64,000 nucleotides of DNA from an uncultured Gammaproteobacteria bacterium (GCA_947258755.1 CAMYJO010000007.1:1-64000); one strand, 5' to 3'. Counted from the stretch's first letter, positions 36,322 to 62,753 are shown. The notes: generated by a model from the sequence alone, not told the origin. Translations and numbers: made by a program.

Positions 36322-36553
36322 TTATGACATAGTATTAATTCGCAACACATATATTCACGTTGACTTGACTTCACAGCAAATGATTGACGCACACAGTTAA
36401 TGCACTCAGAAGTTGCTGATAGTTGCAATTGCCCAAATCGGGTGCATTATTATTGTCCGCATCTTTCTTAAGTAATTGTTTTTTATCCCATTATCCTAAT
36501 GGCATAAATAATGCTTTATTACTATAAAGCTTATCCATGGTAGAGGTAACGAC

Positions 36554-36661: not shown

Positions 36662-38092
<1,431 letters not shown>

Positions 38093-38174: not shown

Positions 38175-38522
38175 ATGATTGATCAATCAATACACACCGA
38201 TTTAGTACCATTGAAGATGTGTTCCGCAACAGTCACGCTCGACCAGAATCTAGCAGACTGGCAACTTGCACAAATCGAAACCAATGCATCACCAGAGCCA
38301 CGAAGCTTTGAATATTATATCGGGTTTGAAAACCCGTTTTCAACTGTGCCCCTGGTTCAGGCGGGAATAGCCGGCTTTGATATCGACAATCAGGACACAA
38401 GCCGATTAAGTTTGCATATTACAGAAGTTTCGAGTGATGGTTTCAAGATCGTCATCCAGACCTGGATGCATACCCGCGTGTACATGGTGGAGGTAAGCTG
38501 GATCGCATTAGGTAGTACTTGA
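38175..38522 (+). CDS. H-type lectin domain protein
   Basis: 115 aa; FENPFSTVPLVQAGIAGFDIDNQDTSRLSLHITEVSSDGFKIVIQTWMHTRVYMVEVSWIALGS matches the H-type lectin domain pattern. Confidence 0.75.
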   Translation: MIDQSIHTDLVPLKMCSATVTLDQNLADWQLAQIETNASPEPRSFEYYIGFENPFSTVPLVQAGIAGFDIDNQDTSRLSLHITEVSSDGFKIVIQTWMHTRVYMVEVSWIALGST

Positions 38523-41500: not shown

Positions 41501-42038
41501 CCGGCGGACTCATCGCATATTCGAACAAAGCATGGAAAACATGCACCGGGACTGCTTTCTTGCCTTCAGGGATAGGCAGCCCTCCCTCGACGATATGAAA
41601 AACGCCCTTTGTGGTACGTCGATCCTTGACTGGATTGTTGAGAATACCCTGAGTCAGCCGATACGAATTAACGTAATTAGATGAAAAGTGATTACCGTCT
41701 GGTGGAAGCGATAACTCTCGAGCCAGCCTGGGCTTGTCGAGTACAAAGGTTGTACCCGGCAAGCTTACCGGATCATTAATATCATTTTCCTGAAAATAAG
41801 TGTTCAGGTAATCCTGTATACGTTGATCGGCTGGACATCGATAATCGGCCAGTAATTTTTTCTGTTGCCGGTAGTTACGCAATAGTTCATCGGCTATCCC
41901 GAGATAATCATTATCGTCGCCACCATGAAAAGTAGGCTGATCTAAAGCTGCAAGTTGCAGATTAATATGCTTTACAATATGCAGTTGCTCTTCAGATAAC
42001 AAATCCTCAGGGCCCAGATTGTTGTTGGATGCATCCAT
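38568..42038 (-). CDS. Large 1156-aa protein, possible PPi-type phosphoenolpyruvate carboxykinase
   Basis: Size and P-loop-like CTVSGGGKSEISKS fit the PPi-PEPCK family as recalled; neighbourhood has ppdK and glgP. Assignment is from memory of the family, not from alignment. Confidence 0.55.
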   Translation of the reverse strand: MDASNNNLGPEDLLSEEQLHIVKHINLQLAALDQPTFHGGDDNDYLGIADELLRNYRQQKKLLADYRCPADQRIQDYLNTYFQENDINDPVSLPGTTFVLDKPRLARELSLPPDGNHFSSNYVNSYRLTQGILNNPVKDRRTTKGVFHIVEGGLPIPEGKKAVPVHVFHALFEYAMSPPDELMCLPFTATQKDQANLWVSLLMRPVVSPEIYAISSEKSLEIRFFAPGGLVSNLDFVERIFGNAGDPCLPENDAALDIHAWTGHTGCIILAPHLINCRAQDLGLPHYDDATARQRRDGMYWKNEDDLYNEGQAFKIVCRDMRGIVVTIIADNYFGYSKKEVKSQISYSSNLLGGSEEEHSGGAIAFPSHNLGDVFQPDARIRMDGHNFQDIVKSYAKFMDVREEGYAIDKQYPDIIYVPEDTRIDLLEQSVSWEKDGVSHQLKLLVHYAYIYPCGYKVRIEKHPRSPTWRLIGTEAEGTFCHKPCTVSGGGKSEISKSISGTLISGPLYVGDIKEDLDLVEEIFFKDYSARFRNSKQNTDSRSFLSEDRSLGSSIRLLTPSDTEYTDEYNRWLDTIPQHIRAVVFIIKRFYRTDWGRNWRQHFTVDVVNGYPGHELKFGGRQLVVNYLRIGEERNGSWRIYKLRQDFVGADKVQMEDDITVSKTVASRRLNYLNPDYNNPSCKLVLNCEQKLFQRPDDAIHRGFDIQAEADLAGDDNFISNFEPLGKNIAIELIEDAIGFGKYTSPMQQLIQRTAQAENGQYFVSSAHPRIVDGRPSPNVRYLQNRPDQVDARGKYIAELGTRLYRRVPADQPVYYPVNAVLPGRRNNAGDPARNIRPLAVYNPIHYQELPELFMDYISSLTGKSPSTTGAGSEGALTKGPFNALSPTADLNNALVSYILCCYDGFSSAAGYVGPNCKVEHDISLLIPEIWCRVPVPQRDAGYMIKHGYLEKLENFTHDGQNILASRLGYRITTQFVHAYMGKIFDNPNVVFDEALLRPETQDMDAYVDGICNIVEAQQGVARGYLEDESVENACPPLKALLYIMAEGDYEGKDIDHPDIRNMFTADYLLNSDWYQQRLFIEQERNIKTWQHHASYINAVLNSGRIVDEVEQLELNNKLVEVNKQLDYLRSVEYLNSLQGSIGADWIDRRIEDTSK

Positions 42039-44802: not shown

Positions 44803-47800
44803 TCACGCCGCCTGCTCCATAGATTCAATAACAGACCCCAAACTGCTGGCTATCGGCTTAATAAGCCAGAACTTGCCGACATAGAACATAAAATCATCAA
44901 GTATGGTTTTTGCCCAGAGACTTCCTGTTTCACTTTCATAATTCTCTATAGACTTACGTAGATAGTTCCTATGCGCCTCGGTATCCTCGGTATCGATACG
45001 GTGTATATCGACCAGTTCGTTATTATAATGATCAACGAAATTATTTTGTAAATCCAGTGCAAAGGCAAAACCACCCGTCATACCCGCACCGAAATTAACA
45101 CCAGTCGGGCCTAGTATTGTGACCACGCCACCGGTCATATATTCACAACAGTGATCACCAGCACCTTCAACAACGGCAATGGCACCTGAATTTCTTACAG
45201 CAAGACGCTCTCCCGCCAAGCCTGCGGCATAAAGAACCCCTCCTGTTGCACCATATAAACAGGTATTGCCGATAATGGCATTTTCCTGGCTTATGAAACT
45301 CGATTTCAAAGGTGGTTTAATAACGATCTTACCACCTGCCATTCCCTTCCCTACATAATCATTGGCATCGCCTTCAAGATACAGATGCAAGCCACCACAG
45401 TTCCATACACCAAAACTCTGTCCGGCTGTACCGGTAAATCGGATAACTAATGGTGTACTTTCCATGCTTTTATTCCCATATCTTTTGACAATCTCGCCTG
45501 CAAGACGCGCACCGATTGAACGATTGTTATTTTTTAGTTCATAGGAAAATTCTTTTGTCTGACGGTTTTCGATAGCAACCCAGGCATCAGCCAACATTGT
45601 TTCTGCCAGTTCCGCTTTGTCAAAGGGCTCATTTCTTGGATGATGGCAATACCTGGGTTTAATACTGTCACACTCTGGCTCGTAAATTAGTGGGTACAAG
45701 TCCAGCCTGGACTGCTTTTGCGATTGACCCGGGAGAATTGTTAACAAATCATACCGGCCGATTAGATCATTAATAGATTGCACACCTAATCGCGCCATCC
45801 ACTCGCGCGTATCCTGTGCAATAAACTGGAAAAAATTCATGACCCTCTGTTCATCACCCTTAAAGTGATTTCTACGCAACAGCCCCTCCTGTGTTGCAAC
45901 ACCAGTAGCACAGTTATTTAAATGGCAAATACGCAAGTATTTGCATCCCATAGCAAGCAGTGTAGCGGTGCCGAACCCAAAACTCTCCGCACCGAGAATG
46001 GTTGCCTTGATTACATCAAGCCCCGTCTTCAGGCCGCCGTCAATCTGTATGCGCACTTTGTCACGTAGATCATTTGCGCGTAATGCTTGACAGGTTTCAC
46101 TTAGACCCAGTTCCCACGGACTGCCTGCGTACTTCACTGAAGTCAATGGACTTGCACCCGTACCGCCATCGTATCCGGATATGGTAATCATATCCGCATA
46201 GGCCTTGGCTACACCTGCTGCGATAGTACCTACACCCGGCTCAGATACCAGTTTTACCGAGACAAGTGCCGCTGGATTAACCTGTTTTAAATCAAAAATT
46301 AGTTGTGCAAGATCTTCGATAGAATAAATATCATGATGCGGCGGTGGAGAAATTAACGGCGTTCCTATCGTTGCATAACGTAAGCTGGCAATCAGTTTGT
46401 TAACTTTTTTCCCGGCCAGCTGACCACCCTCTCCCGGCTTGGCACCTTGAGCAATTTTTATCTGTAGTACCTCAGCATTAACCAGGTAATGCGGTGTCAC
46501 GCCAAACCTACCCGATGCGACCTGCTTAATTTTTGAATTACGTTCAGTGCCAAATCGCTCCCGGCTTTCTCCTCCTTCACCAGAATTAGAACGTCCACCC
46601 AGTCTGTTCATGGCACAGGCAAGGGTTTCGTGTGCTTCAGGCGACAGGGCACCAAGGGACATAGCACCACTTTCAAAACGCTTATAAATATTTTCTAGGG
46701 GCTCTACCGAATCGAGGGCAATAGGTTCAATATCTGTTCTTAAACCCAGCAGGTCGCGCAATACTGTTACTGGCCTTTGATTGATTATATTCGTATACTC
46801 GAGATAATCATCGTAATTACCCGTCTCTACTGCTTTATGTAGGGCATGAACAATATCCGGATTAAAGGCATGATACTCACCAGCATGCATGTACTTTAAC
46901 AAACCACCCTGACTGACCTCTTCTCGTTTCGACCAGGCTTGTCTGCTAATCCTTCTCTGGTCACTTTCAATCTCTTCAAATCCCGCCCCTTCAATTCGGG
47001 TCACTGCGCCGGTAAAACACAAATCCACAACTTCCCGATTGAGACCAATTGCTTCAAACAATTGCGCGCCCCGATAACTGGTTATTGTAGATATACCCAT
47101 CTTGGACAGAATCTTGTATAGGCCTTTATTAATACCTCTCCGATACGTTTGCACTAAATCTGCAGCTGGTCTATCACGAATATCTCCCGAGCTAATCATG
47201 TGACATATGCAATCATAGGCAAGATAGGGGAATACGGCGGAAGCACCATAACCGATTAATACAGCAAAATGATGAGGATCTCTGGCAGTTGCAGTTTCGA
47301 CCACAATATTAACATCGCAACGTAAACCCTCATTAATTAATCGATGATGAACTGCACCAGTAGCCAGTAACGCGTGAATAGGTAGACTGCCTTTTTCTAT
47401 TTTCCTATCACTGAGAATGATAATCTTTATGCCTTCATTCACAGCAGTAACTGCAGTCTCACATAGCTGTTTTATCGCCGTTTCGAGATCAATATTCTCT
47501 GGGTATAGCAGTTCGATAATCCTGTGCATAAAACGGTGATCATTTACAGCCAGCAATTGATTATATTTACTAAAAGACAATACCGGACTATTTACAACAA
47601 TACGTACTGCATGTTCAGCATTGTGCACAAACAAATTTTGCTCATTACCTAAACAGGTTTCGAGAGACATGTTTATACTTTCACGTAATGGATCTATTGG
47701 TGGATTGGTTACCTGTGCAAACTGCTGGCGAAAATAATCGTAAAGGTTTCGGGGCAATCTCGATAATACGGGTAACGGAGTATCGTCCCCCATTGAACCA

Positions 47801-49248
47801 ATGGCTTCCGTACCACCTTCTGCCAATACTTTTATCACCTGCTCCTGCTCTTCATTGCTGATCTGGAACATTTTTAGATATATTTTCAGGTTTTCAGGTT
47901 CCGGAAAAACAATACATGCTTCCTCCTCAAGAGAAGATTGTAGATAAGTAACGTGATCTCTGAGCCATTGTCGGTACGGATATCGTGACTTTAACTCATT
48001 ATCAATATACTCCGGCAGCATTAATTGACCATTCAATGTATCGACGGCAATCATATCACCCGGACGCAAACGCCCTTTGGTCTCAACATCATGTGGCTCA
48101 TAGTCGTACACACCAATTTCTGATGCCAGGGTTATATGCCGGTCTTTGGTAATAACATAACGTGCTGGTCGTAAGCCATTACGGTCCATCGCACAAGCAG
48201 CATATCTGCCATCGGTTAAAACAATCCCTGCCGGCCCGTCCCAGGGCTCCATGTGCATGGAATAATATTCATAGAACGCACGTAAATCAGGATCCATTGA
48301 CTTCATGTTCTGCCAGGCTCTTGGTATCAGCAGGCGCATGGCAAGAAAGATATCCATACCTCCTGCCAACATGGCTTCAAGCATATTATCCAGACTGTAG
48401 GAATCAGAACCGGACATTGAAACCCAGGGGCGTATATCCTCCATTTTCGGGATAAGGTCCGTCTCAAATTTATAGCTTCTTGCCTGCGCCCAGTTTCGAT
48501 TTCCCTGAATAGTATTAATCTCTCCATTATGTGCCAGATACCGAAATGGTTGCGCAAGTCGCCATTCAGGCCAGGTATTCGTAGAAAAACGCTGATGAAA
48601 AATACACAGGGAAGAAGTCAACCTGGCGTCATTCAAATCGACGTAAAATGACGGCAGATTATGTGGAAGCACCAGACCTTTATAACAAATCACCTGAGAG
48701 GACAGGGTAACTACATGAAATACATCATCCTTTTTTTCGATAAGTTTCTTGGCACGCCGTCGAGCGATATACAGATGCCGGTCAAACTGTTCTGTAGTGA
48801 AATCATTTGGTGAATTAACAAACACCTGTTCGATAACTGGCAGCGTTGTTAACGCCTGTGGACCACATACCTGTGGATCGACAGGAACCTGCCGCCATCC
48901 GGCGACAGTTAAACCCTCGGCTTTTAATTCAGTCTCGAGACGATGCCTGGCCCTGGCAGCCAATCCGTCATCGCGACTAAGAAATATCATACCAACACCA
49001 TATAGACCATTCAGGCCAATACCTTCGTCCTGACATACAGCCCGCAAAAAATCATCTGGCTTTTTCATCAAAATACCGCAACCGTCACCAGATTTGCCAT
49101 CCGCAGCAACAGCTCCTCGATGCGTCAGACGTGACAGGGCCTTGATAGCTGTATGTACCAGCCAATGGCTGGGCTCGCCATCCATATGTGCGATTAACCC
49201 GAATCCACAATTATCCTTGTCATTGCTTTTATCATATAGTGATGGCAT
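44803..49248 (-). CDS. gltB: Glutamate synthase large subunit
   Basis: 1481 aa; CGFGLIAHMDG, LAHNGEINTIQGNRNW, GAKPGEGGQLAGKKV, GYDGGTGASPLTS. Confidence 0.97.
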   Translation of the reverse strand: MPSLYDKSNDKDNCGFGLIAHMDGEPSHWLVHTAIKALSRLTHRGAVAADGKSGDGCGILMKKPDDFLRAVCQDEGIGLNGLYGVGMIFLSRDDGLAARARHRLETELKAEGLTVAGWRQVPVDPQVCGPQALTTLPVIEQVFVNSPNDFTTEQFDRHLYIARRRAKKLIEKKDDVFHVVTLSSQVICYKGLVLPHNLPSFYVDLNDARLTSSLCIFHQRFSTNTWPEWRLAQPFRYLAHNGEINTIQGNRNWAQARSYKFETDLIPKMEDIRPWVSMSGSDSYSLDNMLEAMLAGGMDIFLAMRLLIPRAWQNMKSMDPDLRAFYEYYSMHMEPWDGPAGIVLTDGRYAACAMDRNGLRPARYVITKDRHITLASEIGVYDYEPHDVETKGRLRPGDMIAVDTLNGQLMLPEYIDNELKSRYPYRQWLRDHVTYLQSSLEEEACIVFPEPENLKIYLKMFQISNEEQEQVIKVLAEGGTEAIGSMGDDTPLPVLSRLPRNLYDYFRQQFAQVTNPPIDPLRESINMSLETCLGNEQNLFVHNAEHAVRIVVNSPVLSFSKYNQLLAVNDHRFMHRIIELLYPENIDLETAIKQLCETAVTAVNEGIKIIILSDRKIEKGSLPIHALLATGAVHHRLINEGLRCDVNIVVETATARDPHHFAVLIGYGASAVFPYLAYDCICHMISSGDIRDRPAADLVQTYRRGINKGLYKILSKMGISTITSYRGAQLFEAIGLNREVVDLCFTGAVTRIEGAGFEEIESDQRRISRQAWSKREEVSQGGLLKYMHAGEYHAFNPDIVHALHKAVETGNYDDYLEYTNIINQRPVTVLRDLLGLRTDIEPIALDSVEPLENIYKRFESGAMSLGALSPEAHETLACAMNRLGGRSNSGEGGESRERFGTERNSKIKQVASGRFGVTPHYLVNAEVLQIKIAQGAKPGEGGQLAGKKVNKLIASLRYATIGTPLISPPPHHDIYSIEDLAQLIFDLKQVNPAALVSVKLVSEPGVGTIAAGVAKAYADMITISGYDGGTGASPLTSVKYAGSPWELGLSETCQALRANDLRDKVRIQIDGGLKTGLDVIKATILGAESFGFGTATLLAMGCKYLRICHLNNCATGVATQEGLLRRNHFKGDEQRVMNFFQFIAQDTREWMARLGVQSINDLIGRYDLLTILPGQSQKQSRLDLYPLIYEPECDSIKPRYCHHPRNEPFDKAELAETMLADAWVAIENRQTKEFSYELKNNNRSIGARLAGEIVKRYGNKSMESTPLVIRFTGTAGQSFGVWNCGGLHLYLEGDANDYVGKGMAGGKIVIKPPLKSSFISQENAIIGNTCLYGATGGVLYAAGLAGERLAVRNSGAIAVVEGAGDHCCEYMTGGVVTILGPTGVNFGAGMTGGFAFALDLQNNFVDHYNNELVDIHRIDTEDTEAHRNYLRKSIENYESETGSLWAKTILDDFMFYVGKFWLIKPIASSLGSVIESMEQAA

Positions 49249-49303: not shown

Positions 49304-50305
49304 TTAGGCTGCGAACTCTTTTCTATCTTTGGAAGATTCTTTAGTTTCTACTAACTCCTCCTTAATTCTATCAGTCTGGTAATATGCCAACGATAACTGA
49401 TCATGTACTTGCCCAAGTGTTACTTGCAGCTTACTCATGAACTTATTCAACATTTTCCTTCCCATATCTTTTTCATCCGCCTCGAACACAAGGCGTTGCA
49501 AATGCCCCAACGTCCGCAGGGCATCATCACTATCCGGCAATGATCGCAGACAGTTCTCCACCTCGTTTACACAATGAGCAATTGATCGGGGAAATTGCTT
49601 ATCCTGCAGCAGGTAACTCATTACAGCAGAACCTTTAACACGCACATGCACATGGCGTCGGTACATCTGATAGGCAGCAAGAGATTCAAGAATACTTTTC
49701 CACTGGATATCATCAAAGGGCTTGAATTCGTCAGCGAGTTTTGGCAATAAATTACCCGCACGTACTTCAAGAACGCGTGTTGTCATATCAGCACGTTCCA
49801 GGCTCCTGCCCAAACGCACGAATTCATAAGTCTGGTCATGACTCATGGAGCCACTGATATTACCGGCTATAAGCTGACAACTTCGTATTATATGAGTGAG
49901 GTACTCATATCTGCCCTTACGCGATAAAATTTTCGATTTATTTTCCTCAGCATAGTAATGCAGATCGTTCAACACTTCCCAGGTTCCACGTGGCACGATA
50001 GCCCGAGTTGTTCTTAGATTCTCCCTGGCAGACAAGAGGGAGTTCAGAATAGACCCCGGATTTAATTTATCTGATATAAGAAATTTTGCAACACTACGCT
50101 CATCCACCTCAGCATAATGTTCACTAAATAAATCTGATGATCCTGTAATAGTAATTATGGGCTCCCAGCCTGGCGCAATACCCTTGGGTAGGTCGAGCAG
50201 AAGATTTGAATTAACCATTATAATTCGCGCAGTATTTTCTGCACGCTCGATGTAACGCGCCATCCAGTAAATTCTCTCAGCCACCCTTGATAAAATCATT
50301 TGCAT
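49304..50305 (-). CDS. Alpha-E domain protein (DUF403)
   Basis: 333 aa; MILSRVAERIYWMARYIERAENTARIIMVN, SHDQTYEFVRLGRSLERADMTTRVLEV. Confidence 0.92.
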   Translation of the reverse strand: MQMILSRVAERIYWMARYIERAENTARIIMVNSNLLLDLPKGIAPGWEPIITITGSSDLFSEHYAEVDERSVAKFLISDKLNPGSILNSLLSARENLRTTRAIVPRGTWEVLNDLHYYAEENKSKILSRKGRYEYLTHIIRSCQLIAGNISGSMSHDQTYEFVRLGRSLERADMTTRVLEVRAGNLLPKLADEFKPFDDIQWKSILESLAAYQMYRRHVHVRVKGSAVMSYLLQDKQFPRSIAHCVNEVENCLRSLPDSDDALRTLGHLQRLVFEADEKDMGRKMLNKFMSKLQVTLGQVHDQLSLAYYQTDRIKEELVETKESSKDRKEFAA

Positions 50306-50314
50306 TCACCTCAC

Positions 50315-51754
50315 TTACTCTACTATCCACGTGTCTTTACTGCCACCGCCCTGGGAGGAATTGACAACTAGAGAACCTTTCTTCAAAGCTACCCTGGTAA
50401 GACCACCCCGTGTTACATAACTGCTTTCCCCTGACAATATAAATGGACGAAGATCAAGATGGCGTGGCTCCAGTTTTCCGTCACACAATGTTGGTGCTGT
50501 CGACAGACTCAGAGTTGGCTGTGCAACGTAGTTTCTGGGTTTCTTTTTAATTAGGTCTGCAAATTGTTCCCGCTCTTTTTTTGTTGAATTTGGCCCGATC
50601 AACATTCCGTAGCCACCTGACTCATTGGCGGGCTTAACGACTAATTTGTCCAGGTTATTCAGCACATAGTCACATTCATCTTTATACATACACAGATAGG
50701 TCTGTACATTCGGGATAATTGCTTTCTCACCCAGATAATATTCGATCATCTTCGGAACAAATGCATAGACCACTTTGTCATCTGCTACTCCAGCACCCGG
50801 AGCATTCGCAATAGCCACATTCCCCTTACTCCACGCACGCATAATGCCGGGTATACCTAACGTTGATTCCGGTTCGAATACCTCGGGATCCAGAAACAGG
50901 TCATCAACCCGTCGGTATATCACATCGATTCGCTCCAATCCCTCAATAGTACGCATGTAAACACAGTCATCCTCAGAAACCATGAGGTCACTGCCCTCAA
51001 CCAGCTCAACGCCCATCTGTTGGGCAAGGTAAGAGTGTTCAAAATAGGCAGAGTTATAGATACCCGGTGTAAGTACAACAATGGTTGGATAGTCCGCCGG
51101 ACGCGGTGACATAGATGCGAGCATGTCAAACAACCGCGTAGGGTAATCATCAACTGGCTGAATACTATAATCCTCAAACAACTCAGGAAATACACGCTTC
51201 ATAACCATCCGATTCTCAAGCATGTAAGAAACGCCGGAGGGAACTCGCAAATTATCTTCAAGTACATACAAAGTACCGTCCTTGTCACGTACAAGATCAC
51301 TGCCACAAATATGCGCCCATATACCCAGAGGTGGATCGATACCGACGCACTCTTTGCGAAAATTAACTGAATCAGCCAGCACTTCTTCCGGAAAAATTTC
51401 ATCTTTAATGATATTCTGCTCATGATAAATATCATCAATAAAGCAATTCAATGCCTTGACCCGTTGTATAAGTCCCTCTTCGGTACGCGCCCACTCACGT
51501 GCCGAAATCACACGTGGAATTATGTCAAATGGCCAGGTCCGATCAATTCCGGTCCCTTCACTGTAAACAGTAAATGTTATACCCATAACATGCATGGCCA
51601 TCTCGGCTGCATGACTGATGTCCTGTAGTTCATTTTCACGAAGTGATGATAGGTATTTGCAAACAGAGCGGGCGGCTTTACGTGGTCGGCTGGTCGTACC
51701 GATCAACTCATCGAATAAATCATTCGCTTCGTAATCTTTCCATTTTATGCGCAT
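50315..51754 (-). CDS. Circularly permuted ATP-grasp protein (DUF404/DUF407)
   Basis: 479 aa; YVLEDNLRVPSGVSYMLENRMVMKRVFPE, VIYRRVDDLFLDPEVF, VVKPANESGGYGMLIG. Confidence 0.94.
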   Translation of the reverse strand: MRIKWKDYEANDLFDELIGTTSRPRKAARSVCKYLSSLRENELQDISHAAEMAMHVMGITFTVYSEGTGIDRTWPFDIIPRVISAREWARTEEGLIQRVKALNCFIDDIYHEQNIIKDEIFPEEVLADSVNFRKECVGIDPPLGIWAHICGSDLVRDKDGTLYVLEDNLRVPSGVSYMLENRMVMKRVFPELFEDYSIQPVDDYPTRLFDMLASMSPRPADYPTIVVLTPGIYNSAYFEHSYLAQQMGVELVEGSDLMVSEDDCVYMRTIEGLERIDVIYRRVDDLFLDPEVFEPESTLGIPGIMRAWSKGNVAIANAPGAGVADDKVVYAFVPKMIEYYLGEKAIIPNVQTYLCMYKDECDYVLNNLDKLVVKPANESGGYGMLIGPNSTKKEREQFADLIKKKPRNYVAQPTLSLSTAPTLCDGKLEPRHLDLRPFILSGESSYVTRGGLTRVALKKGSLVVNSSQGGGSKDTWIVE

Positions 51755-52576
51755 TACGTGTCAAACCTGCCTGTTATCGCATGTCAAATTATACGCATCC
51801 TGCCTGTGACTTGACATGCCTGGTAAAAAGCCCCGCCATGGATTCAAGAAGATTAAGCAACAATATAAGGCTATTCCACTTGAATAATGTCATCCTTGCT
51901 TAGATCAAAATGCAATGAATATGCCACGTCACAAATAATCTCTAACTCTTTGTTTATAAGATTAATTATAAAATCACACAGTAACTGTCATGCACGGTAA
52001 ATGTGCATAAGAAGTAAATATAATTACATATGCACTAAGATCGCCTGCGTTAAAAACACCCTCTTATCTATGTATTAACCGTGAAACTGACTGATTGCTG
52101 TGCAAACTACTAAACTTCGCATCAATGCCGTGCATCGCAATGACAAGCTTAGCTCTTTTCTATCGGGTTTCAGGGATTCATATAATAATTTTCCCGCTAT
52201 CAGTAACAACTATCCCCATGATGTAAATTAAACGGAGTACATCAGGACACCTAAACAGTGACCATTGCTGGACTATATGCCCGGACAGTGCAGTACTCAA
52301 AACCAGGGATCAGACAGCTAATGAATCCTTTTACCAGTTTGACTAGGACTATTGTAAGGGCTGCGGGTTGTGCGCTCACGAATGTCTATGCGGTATTATA
52401 GAAATGACTGAAGATTTATAAAGCGAATTGTAATTAAAGATTTCATGTCTATTGTCTTTAATTGTTCAGCAAACGTGCATAAGGTCTTTACGTGAACCGG
52501 GATGGTGCGGATTTTATTGTTAACTCTAATCAAAAACAGCCGGCATACCTGCTCCAGGAGAGCTATTGTTCGTTGA

Positions 52577-52605
52577 GTCATTGCGAGACAAAGGCGGCAA
52601 TCTGC
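52577..52605. repeat. Second copy of dispersed TCATTGCGAG...GCGGCAATCTG repeat
   Basis: gtcattgcgagacaaaggcggcaatctgc; same ends as the copy at 10651-10690. Confidence 0.55.
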
Positions 52606-52739
52606 TATATAGAATCAATAAGTCAATGATTGCTTTGGTACTTCTCATCTGACAATCACGAATCCAGCATAACATCACTATGCTAATGGTTCATCTTAAG
52701 GTTTGCTTAATTCTGAAAACTGTCTATATGGCGCAATAA

Positions 52740-54047
52740 TTGCTAAACCTTTCTTACTCGCAACTATCTGATGGAGCTCAGCTATATATGACCATTTCAC
52801 TGGACTTTGCGCGACATGGTGACAAAGAGAATTCGCCCTTTTTTGAAGAATACCTGGTGCGTCTGCTGGAAGAACGTGACCGTGTTGGTCTCACAGACAT
52901 GATTTTTGAGATCGATGCTATTATGATCACGGTTGATCCGGGGCATTCCATCGGTTATATCTGCGAACTATGCTTGATGACGCCATACCACTACCTGGTG
53001 ACGCTGGAAAGCGAATCCCACTGGACTCATATCTTGCGCGTTGATCTTGACTACCCTGATATTCTGATACGTGAAGTAAAAGACCCAAAAATCCAAGGTA
53101 TTTTCAGAAGCCTTAATGAGGTATATCCGATAGGCGCCCGTAAACCCAATAGTCGTTATATGGGTGAAATCCTGCGGGTGTCTGACCTGCACAGCGTAAC
53201 AGAACTACAGAAAGAACGAGAATTCCGTTTTTTTTCGCAGGATCAGATTAGGAAAATGGAGCTACCGGGTAATTTCGCAGTGGGCAAACCATCACCCTAT
53301 ACGCATAATGTTGTTTCTTACATGGAACGCTCCCCCGAACAGCTGCGTGTGTATGCTCTTGGAATCAGTAGCATACGTTATGATATTCAGGAAGCTTACC
53401 TGGCCGCCAAGGAACTGCAGAAACTTCACCAGATTGATGATCTGATATTACCGATTGACCATTTGGCAACAAGAATTTACAGTCAGAACCGCGAAGTCGC
53501 CATACTTGAGTGGCTGTCCTTGTCGAGTTATTACTATTGGGGCTCCTATGATATTAAGAACCAGAATTCTTCTACCAATGTAACTAAAAATGTACATTTT
53601 GATGAAGCTATACGCAGTCCGGTAAAGGTATTTACCGCAAATAATACACCCTATTTTGTTAACCATTTAGAAAAAATGCCGTCACCTACCGAAACTTTTG
53701 TGCGTAATTATGGACCACGTCTTCACCATGTTGCACTTGCGGTCAGAGACGGAGAACGTGGCAATATGGAAAACATAGAATATGTGGTCAAGCAGATCAA
53801 GCAGGAAGGTCAGGACTTCCTCCTTGATGTGATCGGCTCCAAGGATGAAGGTCTCAAGCAGATATTCTCCAATGCCTCTGAGCACTCTTCGCTGATCATT
53901 GAATATGTACAACGTTACGGTGAATTCGATGGCTTCTTTACCAAGAAAAATGTTGCCGAGCTTACCCATGCTGCGGGGGTGGCAGATGAATTACTGGAGC
54001 TACAGGCAGAATCTATGAGCTCAGATTCAATCAAGGATTCTCATTAG
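52740..54047 (+). CDS. VOC-superfamily protein with HPPD-like C-terminal half and unassigned N-terminal region
   Basis: 435 aa from TTG (alternative ATG 52788); LPIDHLATRIY, GPRLHHVALAVRD, LKQIFSNASEHSSLIIEYVQRYGEFDGFFTKKNVAEL resemble HPPD-family metal-binding strands. Confidence 0.65.
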   Translation: MLNLSYSQLSDGAQLYMTISLDFARHGDKENSPFFEEYLVRLLEERDRVGLTDMIFEIDAIMITVDPGHSIGYICELCLMTPYHYLVTLESESHWTHILRVDLDYPDILIREVKDPKIQGIFRSLNEVYPIGARKPNSRYMGEILRVSDLHSVTELQKEREFRFFSQDQIRKMELPGNFAVGKPSPYTHNVVSYMERSPEQLRVYALGISSIRYDIQEAYLAAKELQKLHQIDDLILPIDHLATRIYSQNREVAILEWLSLSSYYYWGSYDIKNQNSSTNVTKNVHFDEAIRSPVKVFTANNTPYFVNHLEKMPSPTETFVRNYGPRLHHVALAVRDGERGNMENIEYVVKQIKQEGQDFLLDVIGSKDEGLKQIFSNASEHSSLIIEYVQRYGEFDGFFTKKNVAELTHAAGVADELLELQAESMSSDSIKDSH

Positions 54048-54050
54048 CTT

Positions 54051-54248
54051 ATGAGCAAGGATTTATCGTCTATAGAATTTTCAGTCAACGATGAGAAGAT
54101 CGTATCATTCGATAATTACAATCGTGGAATTACCCACTTCAAAGAACCATTACAGAATCTTAAATGGAAAAATAAAAATATCTTCCGTGAAGATAATTAT
54201 GAAATAGGAAACTTATCTTCTAACATTATTGATTTCAAAATTGGCTAA
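54051..54248 (+). CDS. Small uncharacterised protein closely coupled to the VOC gene
   Basis: 65 aa; ATG 3 nt after the VOC stop; MSKDLSSIEFSVNDEKIVSFDNYNRGITHFKEPLQNLKWKNKNIF. Confidence 0.4.
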   Translation: MSKDLSSIEFSVNDEKIVSFDNYNRGITHFKEPLQNLKWKNKNIFREDNYEIGNLSSNIIDFKIG

Positions 54249-54450
54249 TCATAAAATTAAATCAGTTATCAGAAGAAATAAACAAGGAAGAGCATAAACC
54301 AGCGCCGACTTATGTATCACTAACAAACCTGTTAGACTCTATCGACAGACTGGAAAACATAAAACTAAGAGTAGATCAGTTACTTCTGCTGATGGTAGTT
54401 AGACAGCGATTTGACGATTAAATGTCTCTATAGCAGATAATAAACTATGG

Positions 54451-55344
54451 TTAGACAACAACATTATCCATTGCTTCAACGTCCACTGATACATTTAACT
54501 TGTGTTCCTTTCCACCACCAAATATGACTCCCTTGAGTGGTGTCACATCACCATAGTCCCTGCCCCAGGCAGTCGTTATATGTCGCTCCATTGGAATTTG
54601 GTTGTTGGTCGGATCAAAATCTACCCAACCGAAGTCCGGGACATACACTGAGAACCAGGCATGAGATGCATCAGCTCCGCGCATGCGTTTCTGACCGGGC
54701 GGAGGTATGGTTTCCAGATAACCGCTGACATAACGTGCCGGAACACCATGTGATATCAGGCATGAAATCGCGAGGTGGGCAAAATCCTGGCATACACCCT
54801 TGCGGTGCGCAAACACTTCACTCAGAGGTGTAGCTATGGTTGTAATATGTGGATCATAATCAAAATCGTTATGGATTCGATCCATTAGATCATGAACCGC
54901 CTCCAGCACAGGCCTGCCGGAATCAAATGATGCTTGTGCATACTTGTGCAAATCGGGGTTTAAACTGACGAAAGGGGATTCTAATAAATACTGTCTTGCA
55001 TCCATATCTTCACTACGGGCACTACGCATGAGAGTATTGCGCACTTCATTCCATGGAATAGGAAAAGCCGCATCCAGCAAGTTACCTGGATGACTGATTT
55101 CTACTTCACTCACTGCTGTCACGGTCAGTGAGTCATGAGGCGTATGCACTGTAAAATAGTGCACCTTGTTACCGAAAAAATCATCCCTTTCAATACTATT
55201 GGCCACACCTGGTTGTACGTTTACACTGGAACTACTACAAACCTGTCTGTTACTGTTACGCGGAGACAAATGCGCAAGATTGTAACAGGATGTTACCGGC
55301 TTACTGTAAGTGTAATGGGTTTCATGTGTGATTCTGTATTTCAT
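54451..55344 (-). CDS. Transglutaminase-like protein (bacterial transglutaminase-like N-terminal domain)
   Basis: 297 aa; YRITHETHYTYSKPVTSCYNLAHLSPR, HRKGVCQDFAHLAISCLISHGVPARYVSGYLET, DASHAWFSVYVPDFGWVDFDPTN. Confidence 0.95.
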   Translation of the reverse strand: MKYRITHETHYTYSKPVTSCYNLAHLSPRNSNRQVCSSSSVNVQPGVANSIERDDFFGNKVHYFTVHTPHDSLTVTAVSEVEISHPGNLLDAAFPIPWNEVRNTLMRSARSEDMDARQYLLESPFVSLNPDLHKYAQASFDSGRPVLEAVHDLMDRIHNDFDYDPHITTIATPLSEVFAHRKGVCQDFAHLAISCLISHGVPARYVSGYLETIPPPGQKRMRGADASHAWFSVYVPDFGWVDFDPTNNQIPMERHITTAWGRDYGDVTPLKGVIFGGGKEHKLNVSVDVEAMDNVVV

Positions 55345-57953
55345 TCCGCACTCCCAGGTCGCATGCGCACCAATTGCTGTATCTGCTCCTCTTTCTGGAA
55401 GTACGCTGTTGTCATCATATTGGAAAGTACCGAAAGCTGCTGCTGGATGTGCTCCAACATCCGGTCTAACTCCACACGCGAAGATAAATCTTCATTAATA
55501 CTGACAAGATCAGCTAAATCAGACAGACGCAGCTTGGTCAATAGTTCCAGTATCAGCCTTTCTTCCGCTGATAATTGTTGGCTGCTGCGGTCTACTGGCA
55601 GGTATGCGACATGTTCCTGTATACGCAATAGCTGGTAACCAACCGATCTCGGATTAGCTTCATTCAGCAGAGTCAGGTTAAGCAGGGATGAAACTTCAAA
55701 ACCTTGCAAGAAATTGCGTTTATACGTCATAAGGCTGTCAGTGACACGTAAGACCGATTCGAGCAACTCGCTATATTCGACTTGCTTACTTGCAAATGTC
55801 AATGTAGAGCGGATGAGTGTTGTAGTATGGAGTGCCCTTTCAACTCTTCTACCGATCTCCAAAAAACGCCATCCCTGCTCATGGGACATATTCTCATTAA
55901 TCAGGCCGCTGAATCCAACCAGTGCCGTAATGAGGTTATCGAGTTCATCATCGGCATCATTCAGGTGATGCATTACACTCTGCTGTATACTATTCAGCTC
56001 CACGTCGATATCATTAATTACTCGCAATGTATCCATGGACAGACGGTCCCGAATACTGCGTGCCGCAACCAGCAAGGCGGACAAGGTCTGGGAAAGACTT
56101 CCCTGCCTGCTTCTGTCGACAATCACCGATAACAGTTCTTGCTCCGGTGATGCAAGCCGTTGATCCGCATCCTGACCGATAAAACCCGGGGTTAATTTCG
56201 TAATCTGGCTGACTGCACGTAATAGTTGGTGCAGGGCAAACAGGGACCGGGGTTCTGATGCTGAATCCAGTGGGCTGTCTGCCAGATATAACTGTACAAC
56301 GCGCAACAAACGGACAATCCCTTCCGCTCGTTCTGTATAACGGCCAAGCCAGAACATATTGTCTGCAACACGACTGGGCACATCACCACCAAGCGGGTTC
56401 TTTTGTACCGCATGAGGTGTAGGCATGATAAGCGTATCCTGCTTCTCCGGTTCCGATGCCAGCACCCAGGTGTCTTTACTGGCCCCACCGTGCTGGCTGG
56501 ACACCATGAAACTATCACGTGTGGCGGATACACGCGTCAACGCACCAGGCATCACAATATAGCTTTCATCCTGAGCGGTAAGGTAGCTGCGCATGACTAC
56601 ATGACGGGAATCCAGTGAAGCGTTTTGCTGCAAAACAGGTGCTGCTGATAAAGTTACCTGTGATTGGGCAGTGAACAAGTATGGCCTGGCATTGATTTTG
56701 TGGATCAATTCATTGCGTTCCTCAGCACTGAGGTTCGCGCCAAAGATGGTACGTTGTTTATCTACTGCAATAGATGGCTTAAGAACCAATTGCTCCAGAT
56801 TAGCCAGTACATATTTCCTGTCATCTTCCCTGCCGCACCACCATGTTCTAACATTATTAAGACGCAAGTCCTCGCCAAAAAAATAACGTGATATTTGTGG
56901 AATAAATGCCATCAGGGCCGAATTCTGCAATACACCACTTCCAAGGGGATTCGATATAGTAACCTTGCCATCCCTGACAACCTGTAGTAACCCAGGAACA
57001 CCCAGGAATGAATCATCACGCAGTTCCACGGGGTCGCAATATTCATCATCTACACGTCGTAAAATCACATCCACTTGCTGCAGACTATCCAGTGTTTTCA
57101 GCCATACGCGTCCGTCACGTACCGTCATGTCACCTCCCTGTACCAGGGTGTAACCCAGATAATTAGCCAGGTAGGCATGCTCGAAGTAACTTTCGTTACC
57201 AACACCCGGTGACAGCAATACAATGAGTGGCTCCTTTTCAGGTTCCGCGGCAAGTGAGTTCAGAGTGTTGCGCATGGTGCGAAAAAAAGAAGCCAGTCGA
57301 TGTACGTGGGAATCACGAAACAAACTGGGCATTACTCGGGAGAGCACAATACGATTTTCAAGTGCATATCCTGCACCGGATGGCGCCTGTGTGCGGTCAG
57401 CGATCACCTGGAATTCACCTTCTGCTGTACGAGCCAGGTCTGCTGCATATAGATGCAGATAGCGTCCATCTTCACGCTGAATGCCATGACATGGACGCAA
57501 GAATGACGGCGAAGAGTAAACAAGTTCCGGTGGCAATATACCGGCTGAGATCAACTTGCGAGGCCCATAAAGATCTTCCAGTACGAGATTCAGAAGTTCT
57601 GCCCGCTGTACCAGACCAGCCTCAATGCTGCTCCACTCCTCACTCCCTATCAGTAAGGGAATCAGGTCCAGATCCCAGGGACGACCTATACCCTGCGGAT
57701 CAGTGTATATATTATATGTTACGTCATTGTCGCGGATCAGTCGTCTGGCTTCACGGTCTCGACGTACCAGCTCATCCCTGCCCATGGCATCCAGTGCGCG
57801 CCCAAAATATTCCCAGTGCGGACGAAGTTTTCCCGGTTTGTCACACATTTCATTATGAACATCCTGCACAAAACTGCAGCTTTTGCATAATGCTGGATCG
57901 TCCATACTTGCTGTTGGGGTTGGATCTGACATAGAATTACCGCTTGCGGTCAA
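55341..57953 (-). CDS. Circularly permuted ATP-grasp fused to alpha-E domain
   Basis: 870 aa; QVIADRTQAPSGAGYALENRIVLSRVMPSLF, VDVILRRVDDEYCDPVELR, then PSRVADNMFWLGRYTERAEGIVRLLRV alpha-E start; 4-nt overlap with next gene. Confidence 0.95.
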   Translation of the reverse strand: MTASGNSMSDPTPTASMDDPALCKSCSFVQDVHNEMCDKPGKLRPHWEYFGRALDAMGRDELVRRDREARRLIRDNDVTYNIYTDPQGIGRPWDLDLIPLLIGSEEWSSIEAGLVQRAELLNLVLEDLYGPRKLISAGILPPELVYSSPSFLRPCHGIQREDGRYLHLYAADLARTAEGEFQVIADRTQAPSGAGYALENRIVLSRVMPSLFRDSHVHRLASFFRTMRNTLNSLAAEPEKEPLIVLLSPGVGNESYFEHAYLANYLGYTLVQGGDMTVRDGRVWLKTLDSLQQVDVILRRVDDEYCDPVELRDDSFLGVPGLLQVVRDGKVTISNPLGSGVLQNSALMAFIPQISRYFFGEDLRLNNVRTWWCGREDDRKYVLANLEQLVLKPSIAVDKQRTIFGANLSAEERNELIHKINARPYLFTAQSQVTLSAAPVLQQNASLDSRHVVMRSYLTAQDESYIVMPGALTRVSATRDSFMVSSQHGGASKDTWVLASEPEKQDTLIMPTPHAVQKNPLGGDVPSRVADNMFWLGRYTERAEGIVRLLRVVQLYLADSPLDSASEPRSLFALHQLLRAVSQITKLTPGFIGQDADQRLASPEQELLSVIVDRSRQGSLSQTLSALLVAARSIRDRLSMDTLRVINDIDVELNSIQQSVMHHLNDADDELDNLITALVGFSGLINENMSHEQGWRFLEIGRRVERALHTTTLIRSTLTFASKQVEYSELLESVLRVTDSLMTYKRNFLQGFEVSSLLNLTLLNEANPRSVGYQLLRIQEHVAYLPVDRSSQQLSAEERLILELLTKLRLSDLADLVSINEDLSSRVELDRMLEHIQQQLSVLSNMMTTAYFQKEEQIQQLVRMRPGSAE

Positions 57954-57985
57954 AAAAACCTTTCACTGGACAGGGTAAATTAATT

Positions 57986-60900
57986 TTAACACTTTGGATG
58001 ATAACGTAAATCCAAGGTATATGGATAGTCCGGATTTCTGTCTTCATCGATAGGATTCAGGTTACCAGGCGTATGTCCATAGGGCCAAAAACGCGCAATT
58101 CGGCGCGATTCCGCCTCGTTGGCATTGACCGGGAATGTTTCATAATGGCGGCCACCAGGGTGGGTAACATGATAGGTACAACCACCTATAGAACGATTGT
58201 TCCAGGTATCAACAAGATCAAATACCAAGGGTGCCTGCACCGGGATATTGGGATGCAGCCCTGATGGTGGTGACCAGGCCTTGTAACGCACCCCTGCTAC
58301 AAATTCTCCTCGGGTGCCGGTAGGATGTAGCGGTACCTTGCGGCCATTACAAGCAACGATATGTCTTCCATCTGTCATACCACTCACCTTGACCTGCAAT
58401 CGCTCCACAGAAGAATCAACGTAACGAGCTGTCCCCAGTGAAGTGACCTCTTCACCTAACACATGCCAAGGCTCAATAGCCCAGCACAATTCCAGCTCAA
58501 TACCCTGATTATCGATTCTGCCGTAATGCGGGAAGCGAAATTCAAGGAAGGGAGCAAACCATTCACGCTTTAGCGGGAAGCCTGCTTGTTCCATATCGCA
58601 TATGACATCCTTGAAATCCTCCCAGACATAATGGGGCAACATAAACCGATCATGCAACTCTGTATTCCAGCGCACCGGATTACGTGTATAGGGTTCTTCC
58701 CAGAATCGGGCAATCAAGGCACGCAATAACAGCATCTGCACGGCGCTCATTTGTGCATGAGGCGGCATTTCAAAAGCGCGGAACTCAACCAGACCCAGCC
58801 GGCCTGTACTGGAATCCGGAGAATAGAGCTTATCGATACAGAATTCGGAACGGTGTGTGTTACCAGTTACATCAATTAGTAGATTGCGTAACAATCGGTC
58901 TACCAGCCACGGCGACGGTACTTCACCGGCCGGTATCTGCTGGAATGCAATCTCAAGTTCGTACAAACTATCATCACGCGCCTCATCCACACGGGGCGCC
59001 TGACTGGTTGGGCCCAGAAACAAACCGGAAAATAAATAGGAAAGGCTCGGATGATTCTGCCAGTATGTCACCAGGCTTTGCAGCAAGTCAGGGCGCCTGA
59101 GTATTGGGCTATCTGCCGGTGTCGCCCCGCCAATAGTAACGTGATTGCCTCCACCGGTACCCGAGTGCCGCCCATCGAGCATAAACTTCTCTGTTCCCAA
59201 TCGCGAAAAGTGCGCCTCTTCATAAAGTGCAGTGATCGTTTCCACAATTTCATCCCAATTATGGGACGGATGGATATTCACTTCGATCACACCCGGATCA
59301 GGTGTAACCGCCAGGCGCAACAGTCGTGGGTCATTGGGTGGTTCATAGCCTTCGAGCAGTACAGGCATTTGTAGTTCGGATGCAGCTGCCTCAATAGAAC
59401 TGACCAGATCCAGGTAGTGCTCCAGGTGGCTCAAGGGTGGCATAAATACATATAACTTGCCGTCACGAGGCTCAACACATAATGCTGTATGAATATCTTT
59501 GCCATCTCCATTTTGCTTATCGGCGGCACCTTCTTGTGTACCATTTACTAGCGGAGACGAAGGAAGTAATTGATCGTAACGCTGAGCCACTTCACCCCAG
59601 ATATCGCCCAGGGGTAGGCGCGGCTCAAATGTACAACGCTGCATTAATAGATCACGCTTTCCCTCGTCCACCCATGGCAATGATCTCAGCGGTATCCGGA
59701 AACCCATTGGAGAATCACCCGGTAGCAAAAACATATGGTCACGGCGAAATTTCCACTTACTACTTTGCCATTGACCTTCACCTACCAGGTCATTCCATTT
59801 CAGAGGTAAAGCGTAACCAACAATTTCATCCAGTCCCTGTTCAAATAATCGTAACAAGCGCTTGCGCTCCAGCGGGTTCTTTAGCTTGTTATCGAGCGGG
59901 TCTACATTGGCAGGCAGCATGCCCTCTTTCCACAGGTAATACACAACATCTTCGTAAGCGGGTTCTATGGTTTCGGCACCAAGGCCCAGATAACGGGACA
60001 GCACCTTGGTAAAACGTTTTGCCTCTTCAGCACCGAAACCATATTCACGTTTTTCGTCCGCTATGAGCTTATCATTTTGCCATACAGGCAAACTATCGGC
60101 ACGCCAGTAACAATTCAAACACCAACGCGGCAGCGGTTCGCCTGGATACCACTTACCCTGCGCATAATGCAGCAATCCACCTGAAGCAAAACGATTGCGC
60201 AAACGCTTAACAAGATCACCCGCCATGTTGCGCTTGTCAGGCCCCATGGCTGTAATATTCCATTCAGCACCATCCATATCATCAACAGATACAAAGGTAG
60301 GTTCCCCACCCATGGTCAGGCGAACATCATTATCCTCGAGGGATTTATCCACTACATGACCAAGCTTCGTGATATCCAGCCATTGTTCATCGGTGTAAGG
60401 TTTAGTGACACGAGGATCCTCGTGAATACGTTGAATCTCATTATGAAAATAAAATTCGACTTCCGCCTTGTCAGTAGCACCGGTTATGGGTGCGGCACTA
60501 ACTGGATCGGGTGTGCAGGCAAGTGGTATATGACCTTCCCCGGCATACAAGCCTGATGTTGGATCCAGACCCACCCAGCCTGCCCCCGGTACATATACCT
60601 CCGCCCAGGCATGTAAATCGGTAAAATCCTTCTCTGACCCTGAAGGACCGTCGAGTGATTTCACATCGGGTTTAAGCTGGATCAGATAACCGGATACAAA
60701 GCGGGCTGCCAAACCCATATGACGCAGTATCTGCACCAGAAGCCAGCCAGTATCGCGACAGGAACCGGATGCCTTTCTCAGCGTATCTTCGCAGGATTGG
60801 ATCCCCGGTTCCATACGGATGTTGTAACCAATATCTTCTTGTAATTTATGATTCAGATCAAATAAGTAATATACAATCTGTCTTCTGTCTGTTTGAAAAC

Positions 60901-61297
60901 CCTTGATCCATTTTTTAAGTAATGGACCATCTTCCTTGATTTCTCGATAAGGGATCAGCTCCTTCCTGAGTTGGTCGTCATACTCAAATGGATAATCGTC
61001 TGCATATTTTTCAACAAAGAAGTCAAACGGATTGATTACAGTCATCTCGGCAACTAGGTCAACTTCCATGCTCAGAGTTCTTGCCTTTTCCTGAAAGACA
61101 AGACGTGCAAGATAATTACCAAAGGGATCTTGTTGCCAGTTAATAAAATGCTTGCTGGGCTCAACTTTTAAAGAATAGGAATGAATCGGTGTCCTGGTAT
61201 GCGGTGCTGGACGTAACCTCAAGATATGCGGCGCCAGATTAACCAGTCGATCAAACTTGTATTCCGTCTTATGATTAATTGCTACTCGTATTGCCAT
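57986..61297 (-). CDS. Large transglutaminase-like protein with DUF2126-type C-terminal region
   Basis: 1103 aa; [111 protein letters not shown]. Confidence 0.95.
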   Translation of the reverse strand: [1103 protein letters not shown]

Positions 61298-61955
61298 GCT
61301 ATGCCTTTAAACAGAATCTGGGTAAAATTTCAATATAGAGCCGATTTATTATAATTATGACCTTCCTGGAAGCTACTAAACTAACAATATATTCACGGGT
61401 AAATATAATTATATCTGCACAAAATATACCATGAATATCTTTCATCTTTCTAACAATGACTTGCATCCCTCGCCCAAGCGTTAAGCGAATTTAAATTGCC
61501 CTTGAAAAGTGCGCCGGAGACTCAACAAGTACTATTTGGGTGCAAGCGAGTTGACAGCCGGGCCAAGGGGCATTTGGGAGATATTATATCGTATTTTGAC
61601 CGGTAGAAGTTTTTCACAATATACCGATTAATAGGCTAGATGGTTACTATATTCTGTGTTTGCCTATTGCTGAATATTACCTATTATCGATATAAAGATG
61701 GCCGTTGAAACTAGTCTGCTACAAAATATAGCAAACGCATTTGCACGAATACTTATTACATAACCAATTATATCAGATTATGTATTAGAGAAATACCTTG
61801 CACCTATTATAATTTTTCCTCTAAAGTACGACTTGAACCACATGCTTTACTCCTTCGCCCAAGGGAGGGACATGAACTGCTTCCTATTATGAAATAGGCG
61901 ACAGTCAATGGGATCTTTTACTCACTTTTTTTACATTCTTCTAAAGGATTATCAT

Positions 61956-62753
61956 ATGTGGTTACATACGAGCTGTGATTTGACGTTCGATATTACTATA
62001 CCGACACCCTTCATTCTAATGCTGAGACCTCGTAGTGGCGCGCAGCAGTGGATAGCACGCGAGGAATACATGCTCGAGCCTAGTGTACCTGTGTTTGAAT
62101 TCACAGATAACTACGGCAATCTCTGTCAGCGACTGGTCGCTCCGCCTGGAATCTTCTCGGTTCACACTGCTGCTGACGTAATGACTACGGATTACGTTGA
62201 TCAGGCTCAGGGAGCGCCATTTGTCGAGGTCCAGAATTTGCCCGACAGCGTACTCAGTTACCTGTTACCTAGCCGATACTGCGAGTCGGATCATTTTTGT
62301 GATATGGCAACCTCGATTACAGCAGGCCAGCTGCCGGGTTACGATCAGGTTAAGGCCATAGATTCCTGGTTGCGAAGTACGATACGTTATGAATCTGGCA
62401 GCAGTGACATCCCGGTATCAGCAGTAGAGGTTAATGCCAGACAATCGGGTGTCTGCCGAGATCTTTCACACCTCGGAATTGCATTGTGTCGTAGTCTTAG
62501 TATTCCGGCGCGATTAGTGGTGGGTTATCTCTACGGACTCGAACCTATGGATCTGCACGCTTGGTTTGAGGCATACATTGCTGGACGCTGGTATACTTTT
62601 GATGCGACGCAGGCCGAACTCAAGGGCGGGTATGTGGCAATTGGTTATGGTCGTGATGCCGCTGATGTTGCTGTCTACAATCAGTTTGGCCCCCCGGTGT
62701 ACCCCATTGGGCAGAACATTCTCGTGCAATTCATTGAAAAGCAAAATACCTGA
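61956..62753 (+). CDS. Transglutaminase-like protein
   Basis: [61 protein letters not shown] 61956 preceded by AAAGGA. Confidence 0.92.

What the first reader, a model, noticed from the sequence alone, without database searches (positions are those of the whole stretch)
49304..62753. Expanded ATP-grasp / alpha-E / transglutaminase system with an HPPD-like dioxygenase candidate inside it
Seen: a stand-alone alpha-E plus ATP-grasp pair (49304-51754), a second ATP-grasp/alpha-E fusion (55341-57953), three transglutaminase-like genes (54451, 57986, 61956) and, between the blocks, an HPPD-like VOC gene (52740) with a small linked ORF. Established: circularly permuted ATP-grasp, alpha-E and transglutaminase-like genes recur together and have been proposed from comparative genomics (Iyer, Aravind and colleagues) to make and turn over peptide-like amide products. 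Inference: the VOC protein may be an oxygenase modifying the product or precursor; gltB directly next door could supply glutamate. No Anbu-type peptidase was seen in this window.
Basis: partly seen in the sequence, partly recalled or inferred. Interest (0 to 1): 0.72.

Follow-up and report, generated by a model that had tools for sequence, protein, structure and literature searches.

The report
HPPD-like partner of Anbu ATP-grasp system
A protein that no family database we searched recognises, but whose predicted shape and metal-binding residues match iron-dependent oxygenases (HPPD, hydroxymandelate synthase), is a recurrent member of a poorly understood, nitrogen-starvation-linked bacterial amide-making gene system, which gives that system a concrete chemical step to test.

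Summary
The VOC gene starts at ATG 52788, not 52740. It matches no Pfam or NCBIfam family, yet its homologues are 61-89% identical in gamma-, beta- and zetaproteobacterial sulfur, iron and methane/methanol oxidisers. Foldseek on an AlphaFold model places it with hydroxymandelate synthase and HPPD (E 3e-15), and the 2-His-1-Glu ligands align. 58 of 80 homologous loci lie within 10 kb of ATP-grasp/alpha-E/transglutaminase/Anbu genes, in many gene orders, often as overlapping operon genes. 33 of 34 VOC-bearing genomes in a 370-genome survey carry Alpha-E, against 88 of 336 others (p 9e-17). The window's genome holds a second copy in the operon ATP-grasp-alphaE-Anbu-VOC. Sigma-54 and NtrC-type motifs lie between the divergent ATP-grasp and VOC genes and recur across loci, but not before operon-internal VOC genes. 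Most likely it is an Fe(II) alpha-keto-acid oxygenase working with a nitrogen-limitation amidoligase system. Its substrate is unknown. Two genomes keep VOC without ATP-grasp or alpha-E; in one it overlaps putA, pointing to glutamate/proline metabolism.

The parts
49304..50305 (-). alpha-E protein (PF04168)
   Evidence: 284 bits
50315..51754 (-). circularly permuted ATP-grasp (PF14403/PF04174), 9-nt gap to alpha-E
   Evidence: 558 bits
51911..51926 (-). sigma-54 (-24/-12) like motif TGGCATATTCATTGCA, upstream of the ATP-grasp gene (-172 from ATG)
   Evidence: 1 mismatch, GG/GC core kept
51991..52007 (.). NtrC-type palindrome TGCACGGTAAATGTGCA, the only perfect TGCAC-N7-GTGCA in the window
   Evidence: expected 0.27 per 64 kb
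52729..52744 (+). sigma-54 like motif TGGCGCAATAATTGCT, -59 from the VOC ATG
52788..54047 (+). HPPD/HMS-fold VOC protein (419 aa); metal ligands H225, H314, E372
54451..55344 (-). transglutaminase-like protein with intact Cys-His-Asp motifs
55341..57953 (-). ATP-grasp/alpha-E fusion, overlaps the transglutaminase start by 4 nt
57986..61297 (-). transglutaminase + DUF2126 putative amidoligase, 32 nt upstream of the fusion gene
61908..62753 (+). third transglutaminase, divergent from 57986-61297
44803..49248 (-). gltB, glutamate synthase large subunit, same strand 55 nt downstream of alpha-E (context; same order only in the congener L006/G039)

Best explanation
The VOC protein is a recurrent component of the ATP-grasp/alpha-E/transglutaminase/Anbu system in a set of mostly lithotrophic and methylotrophic Proteobacteria, and probably part of a nitrogen-limitation (NtrC/sigma-54) regulon. 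Shown by computation: linkage, co-occurrence, HPPD/HMS fold, conserved HHE ligands, promoter motifs. Inferred: like HPPD, hydroxymandelate synthase and HglS it binds Fe(II) with H225, H314 and E372, chelates an alpha-keto acid and uses O2 to decarboxylate and hydroxylate that acid within one molecule. More speculative: the acid comes from glutamate/glutamine/proline metabolism, and the hydroxy-acid product is a building block (or cap) that the ATP-grasp enzymes activate and join by an amide bond, while the transglutaminases and Anbu trim or recycle the product.
For: Linkage in 58 of 80 loci with many orders, e.g. AG>aE>VOC with a 4-nt overlap; Methylomonas AG>aE>VOC>TG-DUF2126; Methylotenera AG>aE>TG>VOC>TG-DUF2126; own-genome AG>aE>Anbu>VOC. 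On the ATP-grasp tree the linkage needs 9 label changes, at least 6 forced by well-supported branches. Co-occurrence 33/34 against 88/336, p 8.6e-17, in 21 families; 20 of 22 further VOC genomes, mostly unlinked, carry Alpha-E. Fold: AlphaFold pTM 0.80, every one of the top 50 PDB matches HPPD or HMS, E down to 3e-15. HHE aligned by hhalign and invariant. The genome has no canonical HPPD. Regulation: sigma-54 motif before 27 of 50 ATP-grasp operon heads (expected 1.7%) and NtrC motif before 22 of 50 (2.1%); VOC divergent from the system 6/12 and 8/12, unlinked VOC 7/34 (p 7e-6) and 6/34 (p 2e-4), operon-internal VOC at background 2/43 and 2/43. NtrC is in the genome. Published: these operons are NtrC-induced in P. 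putida (PMC7801951) and B. cenocepacia (PMC5491218); decarboxylation-hydroxylation in this fold (HglS, PMC7286885); an oxygenase-made acid joined by an ATP-grasp enzyme (E-64, PMC12568646).
Against: No activity, metal content or substrate is known. VOC is dispensable to the system: most Alpha-E genomes (88 of 121 surveyed) lack it. Two VOC genomes lack both alpha-E and ATP-grasp, so its reaction does not need them. The AlphaFold model is moderate (pLDDT 77, weak at 286-310). hhalign E is 0.0023 with low probability (12.7). Invariance of three residues is modest evidence in a family where about a third of columns are invariant. The motif counts include closely related loci.
Confidence: 0.6

Rival explanations
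1. The VOC is an oxygenase that tailors the finished amide or peptide product, or a protein tagged by the ATP-grasp system.
For: Tight operon linkage with all ligase, transglutaminase and Anbu genes.
Against: Genomes G248 and that of L009 keep the VOC with no alpha-E and no CP ATP-grasp; HPPD-type enzymes act on small alpha-keto acids.
Confidence: 0.2
2. The VOC serves nitrogen salvage: it breaks down or detoxifies an alpha-keto acid that arises when glutamine, glutamate or proline is used as nitrogen source, and is linked to the amide system only because both belong to the NtrC regulon.
For: Sigma-54/NtrC motifs; VOC overlaps putA and is followed by a glutamate-synthase-domain gene in G248; nas/nir-type genes beside Thiobacillus operons.
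Against: Other NtrC-regulon genes are not recurrent neighbours, whereas system genes are, with overlapping reading frames and 33 of 34 co-occurrence.
Confidence: 0.25
3. The VOC no longer catalyses oxygenation; it acts as a metal-dependent lyase/isomerase, a structural subunit or an oxygen/keto-acid sensor of the complex.
For: A position next to the second His that is Gln in HPPD is His here, so the substrate pocket differs.
Against: All three HPPD metal ligands are invariant in all 43 aligned sequences and the full two-domain fold is kept.
Confidence: 0.12
4. Coincidental neighbourhood or passenger gene.
For: 22 of 80 loci are unlinked; not all systems have it.
Against: Linkage, co-occurrence, repeated operon orders and shared promoter motifs.
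Confidence: 0.02

Closest known systems
Anbu operon / ATP-grasp-alphaE-transglutaminase amidoligase system (Iyer 2009, cited in PMC6376114 and PMC5666114)
   Same: CP ATP-grasp, alpha-E, transglutaminase, in relatives and on contig C16 Anbu; NtrC/sigma-54 control as in P. putida and B. cenocepacia (PMC7801951, PMC5491218)
   Different: Adds an HPPD-fold protein; the operon descriptions seen in the held Anbu papers (PMC6376114, PMC5666114) name no such component (the text of Iyer 2009 was not held, so not checked)
4-hydroxyphenylpyruvate dioxygenase / hydroxymandelate synthase
   Same: Two-domain VOC fold (best Foldseek hits), HHE ligands in register, C-terminal E-x-x-QR...GFF..N motif
   Different: About 13% identity, no TIGR01263/Pfam match, active-site Gln before the second His is an invariant His
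HglS / DUF1338 hydroxyglutarate synthase (PMC7286885)
   Same: VOC-fold Fe(II) enzyme that decarboxylates and hydroxylates an alpha-keto acid, proposed as mechanism analogue
   Different: No PF07063 match; not among the top 50 structural matches
E-64 pathway (PMC12568646)
   Same: An Fe(II) oxygenase makes a carboxylic acid that an ATP-grasp enzyme couples to an amino acid
   Different: Fungal, alpha-ketoglutarate-dependent oxygenase of another fold class; analogy only

Membership tests
HPPD/HMS family (TIGR01263) | Two-domain VOC fold of HPPD/HMS | tested here: met
   Foldseek E 3e-15 to 2r5v, all top 50 HPPD/HMS, 406 aligned columns, on a model with pTM 0.80
HPPD/HMS family (TIGR01263) | 2-His-1-Glu metal ligands | tested here: met
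   H225/H314/E372 align with H161/H239/E319 and are invariant
HPPD/HMS family (TIGR01263) | Recognised by the curated profile | tested here: not met
   No NCBIfam or Pfam hit; TIGR01263 finds nothing in the genome
HPPD/HMS family (TIGR01263) | Substrate-pocket Gln before the second metal His | tested here: not met
   Invariant His (H313) in its place
HPPD/HMS family (TIGR01263) | 4-hydroxyphenylpyruvate turnover | not testable with these tools
   needs an enzyme assay
HglS / DUF1338 | PF07063 profile | tested here: not met
   no Pfam hit
Anbu/ATP-grasp/alpha-E/transglutaminase system | CP ATP-grasp + alpha-E + transglutaminase clustered | tested here: met
Anbu/ATP-grasp/alpha-E/transglutaminase system | Anbu in the operon | tested here: met
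   absent from the window, present on C16 in ATP-grasp-alphaE-Anbu-VOC and found in 23 of 80 VOC loci
NtrC/sigma-54 regulon | -24/-12 promoter and NtrC sites | tested here: met
   motifs in window and enriched across loci
NtrC/sigma-54 regulon | NtrC binding and NtrC-dependent expression | not testable with these tools
   needs expression or footprinting data

The most novel reading that the evidence does not exclude
A further branch of intramolecular alpha-keto-acid oxygenases (beside HPPD, HMS, HPDL and HglS) that makes an unknown hydroxy acid used by the Anbu/ATP-grasp system to build a nitrogen-limitation amide metabolite or tag in lithotrophs and methylotrophs.
Probability: 0.35. Interest if true: 0.82.

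Novelty: new variant of a known kind. Interest (0 to 1): 0.64.

Why it matters
The Anbu/ATP-grasp/alpha-E/transglutaminase operon is widespread and nitrogen-regulated; the papers read here report no known function for Anbu and no peptidase activity (PMC6376114, PMC8665760). A conserved companion with a recognisable oxygenase active site gives a first handle on the chemistry: an enzyme whose substrate class (alpha-keto acid, Fe(II), O2) can be screened directly, plus testable operons in culturable hosts such as Methylomonas and Thiobacillus. It also adds a family that Pfam and NCBIfam do not cover.

Tried and rejected
Pfam, NCBIfam and PDB sequence searches with the VOC gave nothing. No plasmid or phage copies, so no mobile-element explanation. 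The first AlphaFold run was weak (pLDDT 62.8) and was repeated with a more divergent alignment. The small ORF 54051-54248 was rejected as a linked gene. gltB adjacency as a general feature was rejected (only L006/G039). Sigma-70 promoter and terminator scans were at chance. No sigma-54 or NtrC motif (up to 2 mismatches) upstream of the C16 operon, and no sigma-54 motif upstream of the DUF2126 gene. Canonical tyrosine-catabolism HPPD was rejected. Iyer 2009 could not be read, so whether it mentions a VOC gene is unchecked.

Full report
OBSERVATION. On the minus strand, TG-DUF2126 (57986-61297), the ATP-grasp/alpha-E fusion (55341-57953) and a transglutaminase (54451-55344) run as one block, with a 32-nt gap and then a 4-nt overlap. 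ATP-grasp (50315-51754) and alpha-E (49304-50305) form a second block, followed 55 nt later by gltB. The VOC gene stands on the plus strand between the blocks. A third transglutaminase (61908-62753) is divergent from TG-DUF2126. All three transglutaminases have Cys-His-Asp motifs. The VOC start is corrected to ATG 52788, because homologues align from there.

WHAT THE VOC PROTEIN IS. It matches no Pfam model even at E 10, no NCBIfam model and no PDB sequence. The genome-collection scan found 196 relatives and kept 80, at 68-89% identity, in gamma-, beta- and zetaproteobacteria, mostly sulfur, iron and methane/methanol oxidisers. Further homologues go down to 61%. A first AlphaFold model (pLDDT 62.8) already matched HPPD best. 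A second, with a more divergent alignment, reached pLDDT 77.5 and pTM 0.80; its top 50 PDB matches are all hydroxymandelate synthase or HPPD, E 3e-15 downwards, over both domains. A profile comparison with HPPDs taken from related genomes aligns the C-terminal domain (E 0.0023, 28% identity) and puts H225, H314 and E372 opposite the HPPD metal ligands; all three are invariant in 43 sequences. One pocket residue (Gln before the second His) is replaced by an invariant His, so the substrate is probably not 4-hydroxyphenylpyruvate. The genome has no canonical HPPD.

LINKAGE. In 58 of the 80 loci the VOC lies within 10 kb of ATP-grasp, alpha-E, transglutaminase, TG-DUF2126 or Anbu genes. The orders vary: ATP-grasp>alpha-E>VOC (often overlapping by 4 nt) in Acidithiobacillus and thiobacilli, the same plus an overlapping TG-DUF2126 gene in Methylomonas, ATP-grasp>alpha-E>TG>VOC>TG-DUF2126 in Methylotenera, TG-DUF2126>ATP-grasp>alpha-E>Anbu>VOC, and Zetaproteobacterial variants. 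The window's own genome has a second VOC (77% identical) on contig C16 in ATP-grasp>alpha-E>Anbu>VOC. On an ATP-grasp tree the VOC-linked label needs 9 changes, at least 6 forced by well-supported branches, so distinct lineages of the system carry it. In a 370-genome class survey, 33 of 34 VOC genomes (21 families) have Alpha-E against 88 of 336 without VOC (p 8.6e-17). Of 22 further VOC genomes, mostly unlinked or outside the class, 20 have Alpha-E (some repeat genomes of the survey). The congener G166 lacks both. Three of the 34 survey hits are broken or partial copies (G139, G184, G234).

REGULATION. The 1-kb gap between the divergent ATP-grasp and VOC genes holds a sigma-54-like motif pointing at each gene (51911-51926 minus, 52729-52744 plus; one mismatch each) and the window's only perfect NtrC-type palindrome (51991-52007). 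Markov-simulated sequence gives 1.8 such sigma-54 motifs and 0.27 such palindromes per 64 kb. This was noticed after the fact, so it was tested across loci: 27 of 50 ATP-grasp operon heads have the sigma-54 motif and 22 of 50 the NtrC motif, against 1.7% and 2.1% expected. VOC genes divergent from the system have them in 6 and 8 of 12. Unlinked VOC genes have them in 7 and 6 of 34 (p 7e-6, 2e-4). VOC genes inside operons, an internal control, are at background (2 and 2 of 43). Related loci are not independent, so the p-values are optimistic. NtrC is present in the genome. Published work shows NtrC/sigma-54 induction of the same operon under nitrogen limitation in Pseudomonas putida (PMC7801951) and Burkholderia cenocepacia (PMC5491218). 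In Thiobacillus the operon adjoins molybdopterin-oxidoreductase and nirBD-type genes, read as assimilatory nitrate/nitrite reduction.

EXCEPTIONS. G248 and the genome of L009 carry VOC without alpha-E and without CP ATP-grasp. In G248 the VOC gene overlaps a putA gene (proline to glutamate), followed by a glutamate-synthase-domain gene. This argues that the VOC acts on a small metabolite near glutamate/proline rather than only on the ATP-grasp product.

MECHANISM. By analogy with HPPD, HMS and HglS (PMC7286885), the VOC protein should be an Fe(II) enzyme that decarboxylates and hydroxylates an alpha-keto acid using O2. The E-64 pathway (PMC12568646) is a precedent for an oxygenase-made acid being joined to an amino acid by an ATP-grasp enzyme. 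Both the substrate and the hand-over to the ATP-grasp enzymes are inference.

VERDICT. The chemical role is plausible but untested. I rate it a new component of a known kind of system.

Noticed in passing
window 38568-42038 (-): 1156-aa protein without any Pfam or NCBIfam hit matches PPi-dependent PEP carboxykinase structures (8e1u, 6k31) with E 0; it lies beside an alpha-glucan phosphorylase gene (42096-44651).
   Followed up: partly
L029:8146-8856, L010:11273-11494, L028:11288-12001, L007, L024, L053, L060, L073, L077: A ParA/MinD-like P-loop protein family without a Pfam hit sits next to VOC or TG-DUF2126 genes in about 10 loci; 6 of 24 VOC genomes and 2 of 16 others tested carry it. Possibly another accessory of the system.
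   Followed up: partly
window 36430-36515, upstream of gltD (36683-38092): NtrC-like site (1 mismatch) and sigma-54-like site (2 mismatches) before the glutamate synthase small subunit gene.
   Followed up: no
L170:9843-15852 (G248): VOC overlapping putA and followed by a glutamate-synthase-domain gene in a genome without alpha-E or CP ATP-grasp.
   Followed up: yes
L047, L173, L174: Broken VOC genes (frameshifts or stops), one of them in the complete genome of Methylomicrobium sp. wino1, suggesting occasional loss.
   Followed up: no
window 38175-38522 (+): H-type lectin domain protein (PF09458) between gltD and the PEP carboxykinase gene.
   Followed up: no
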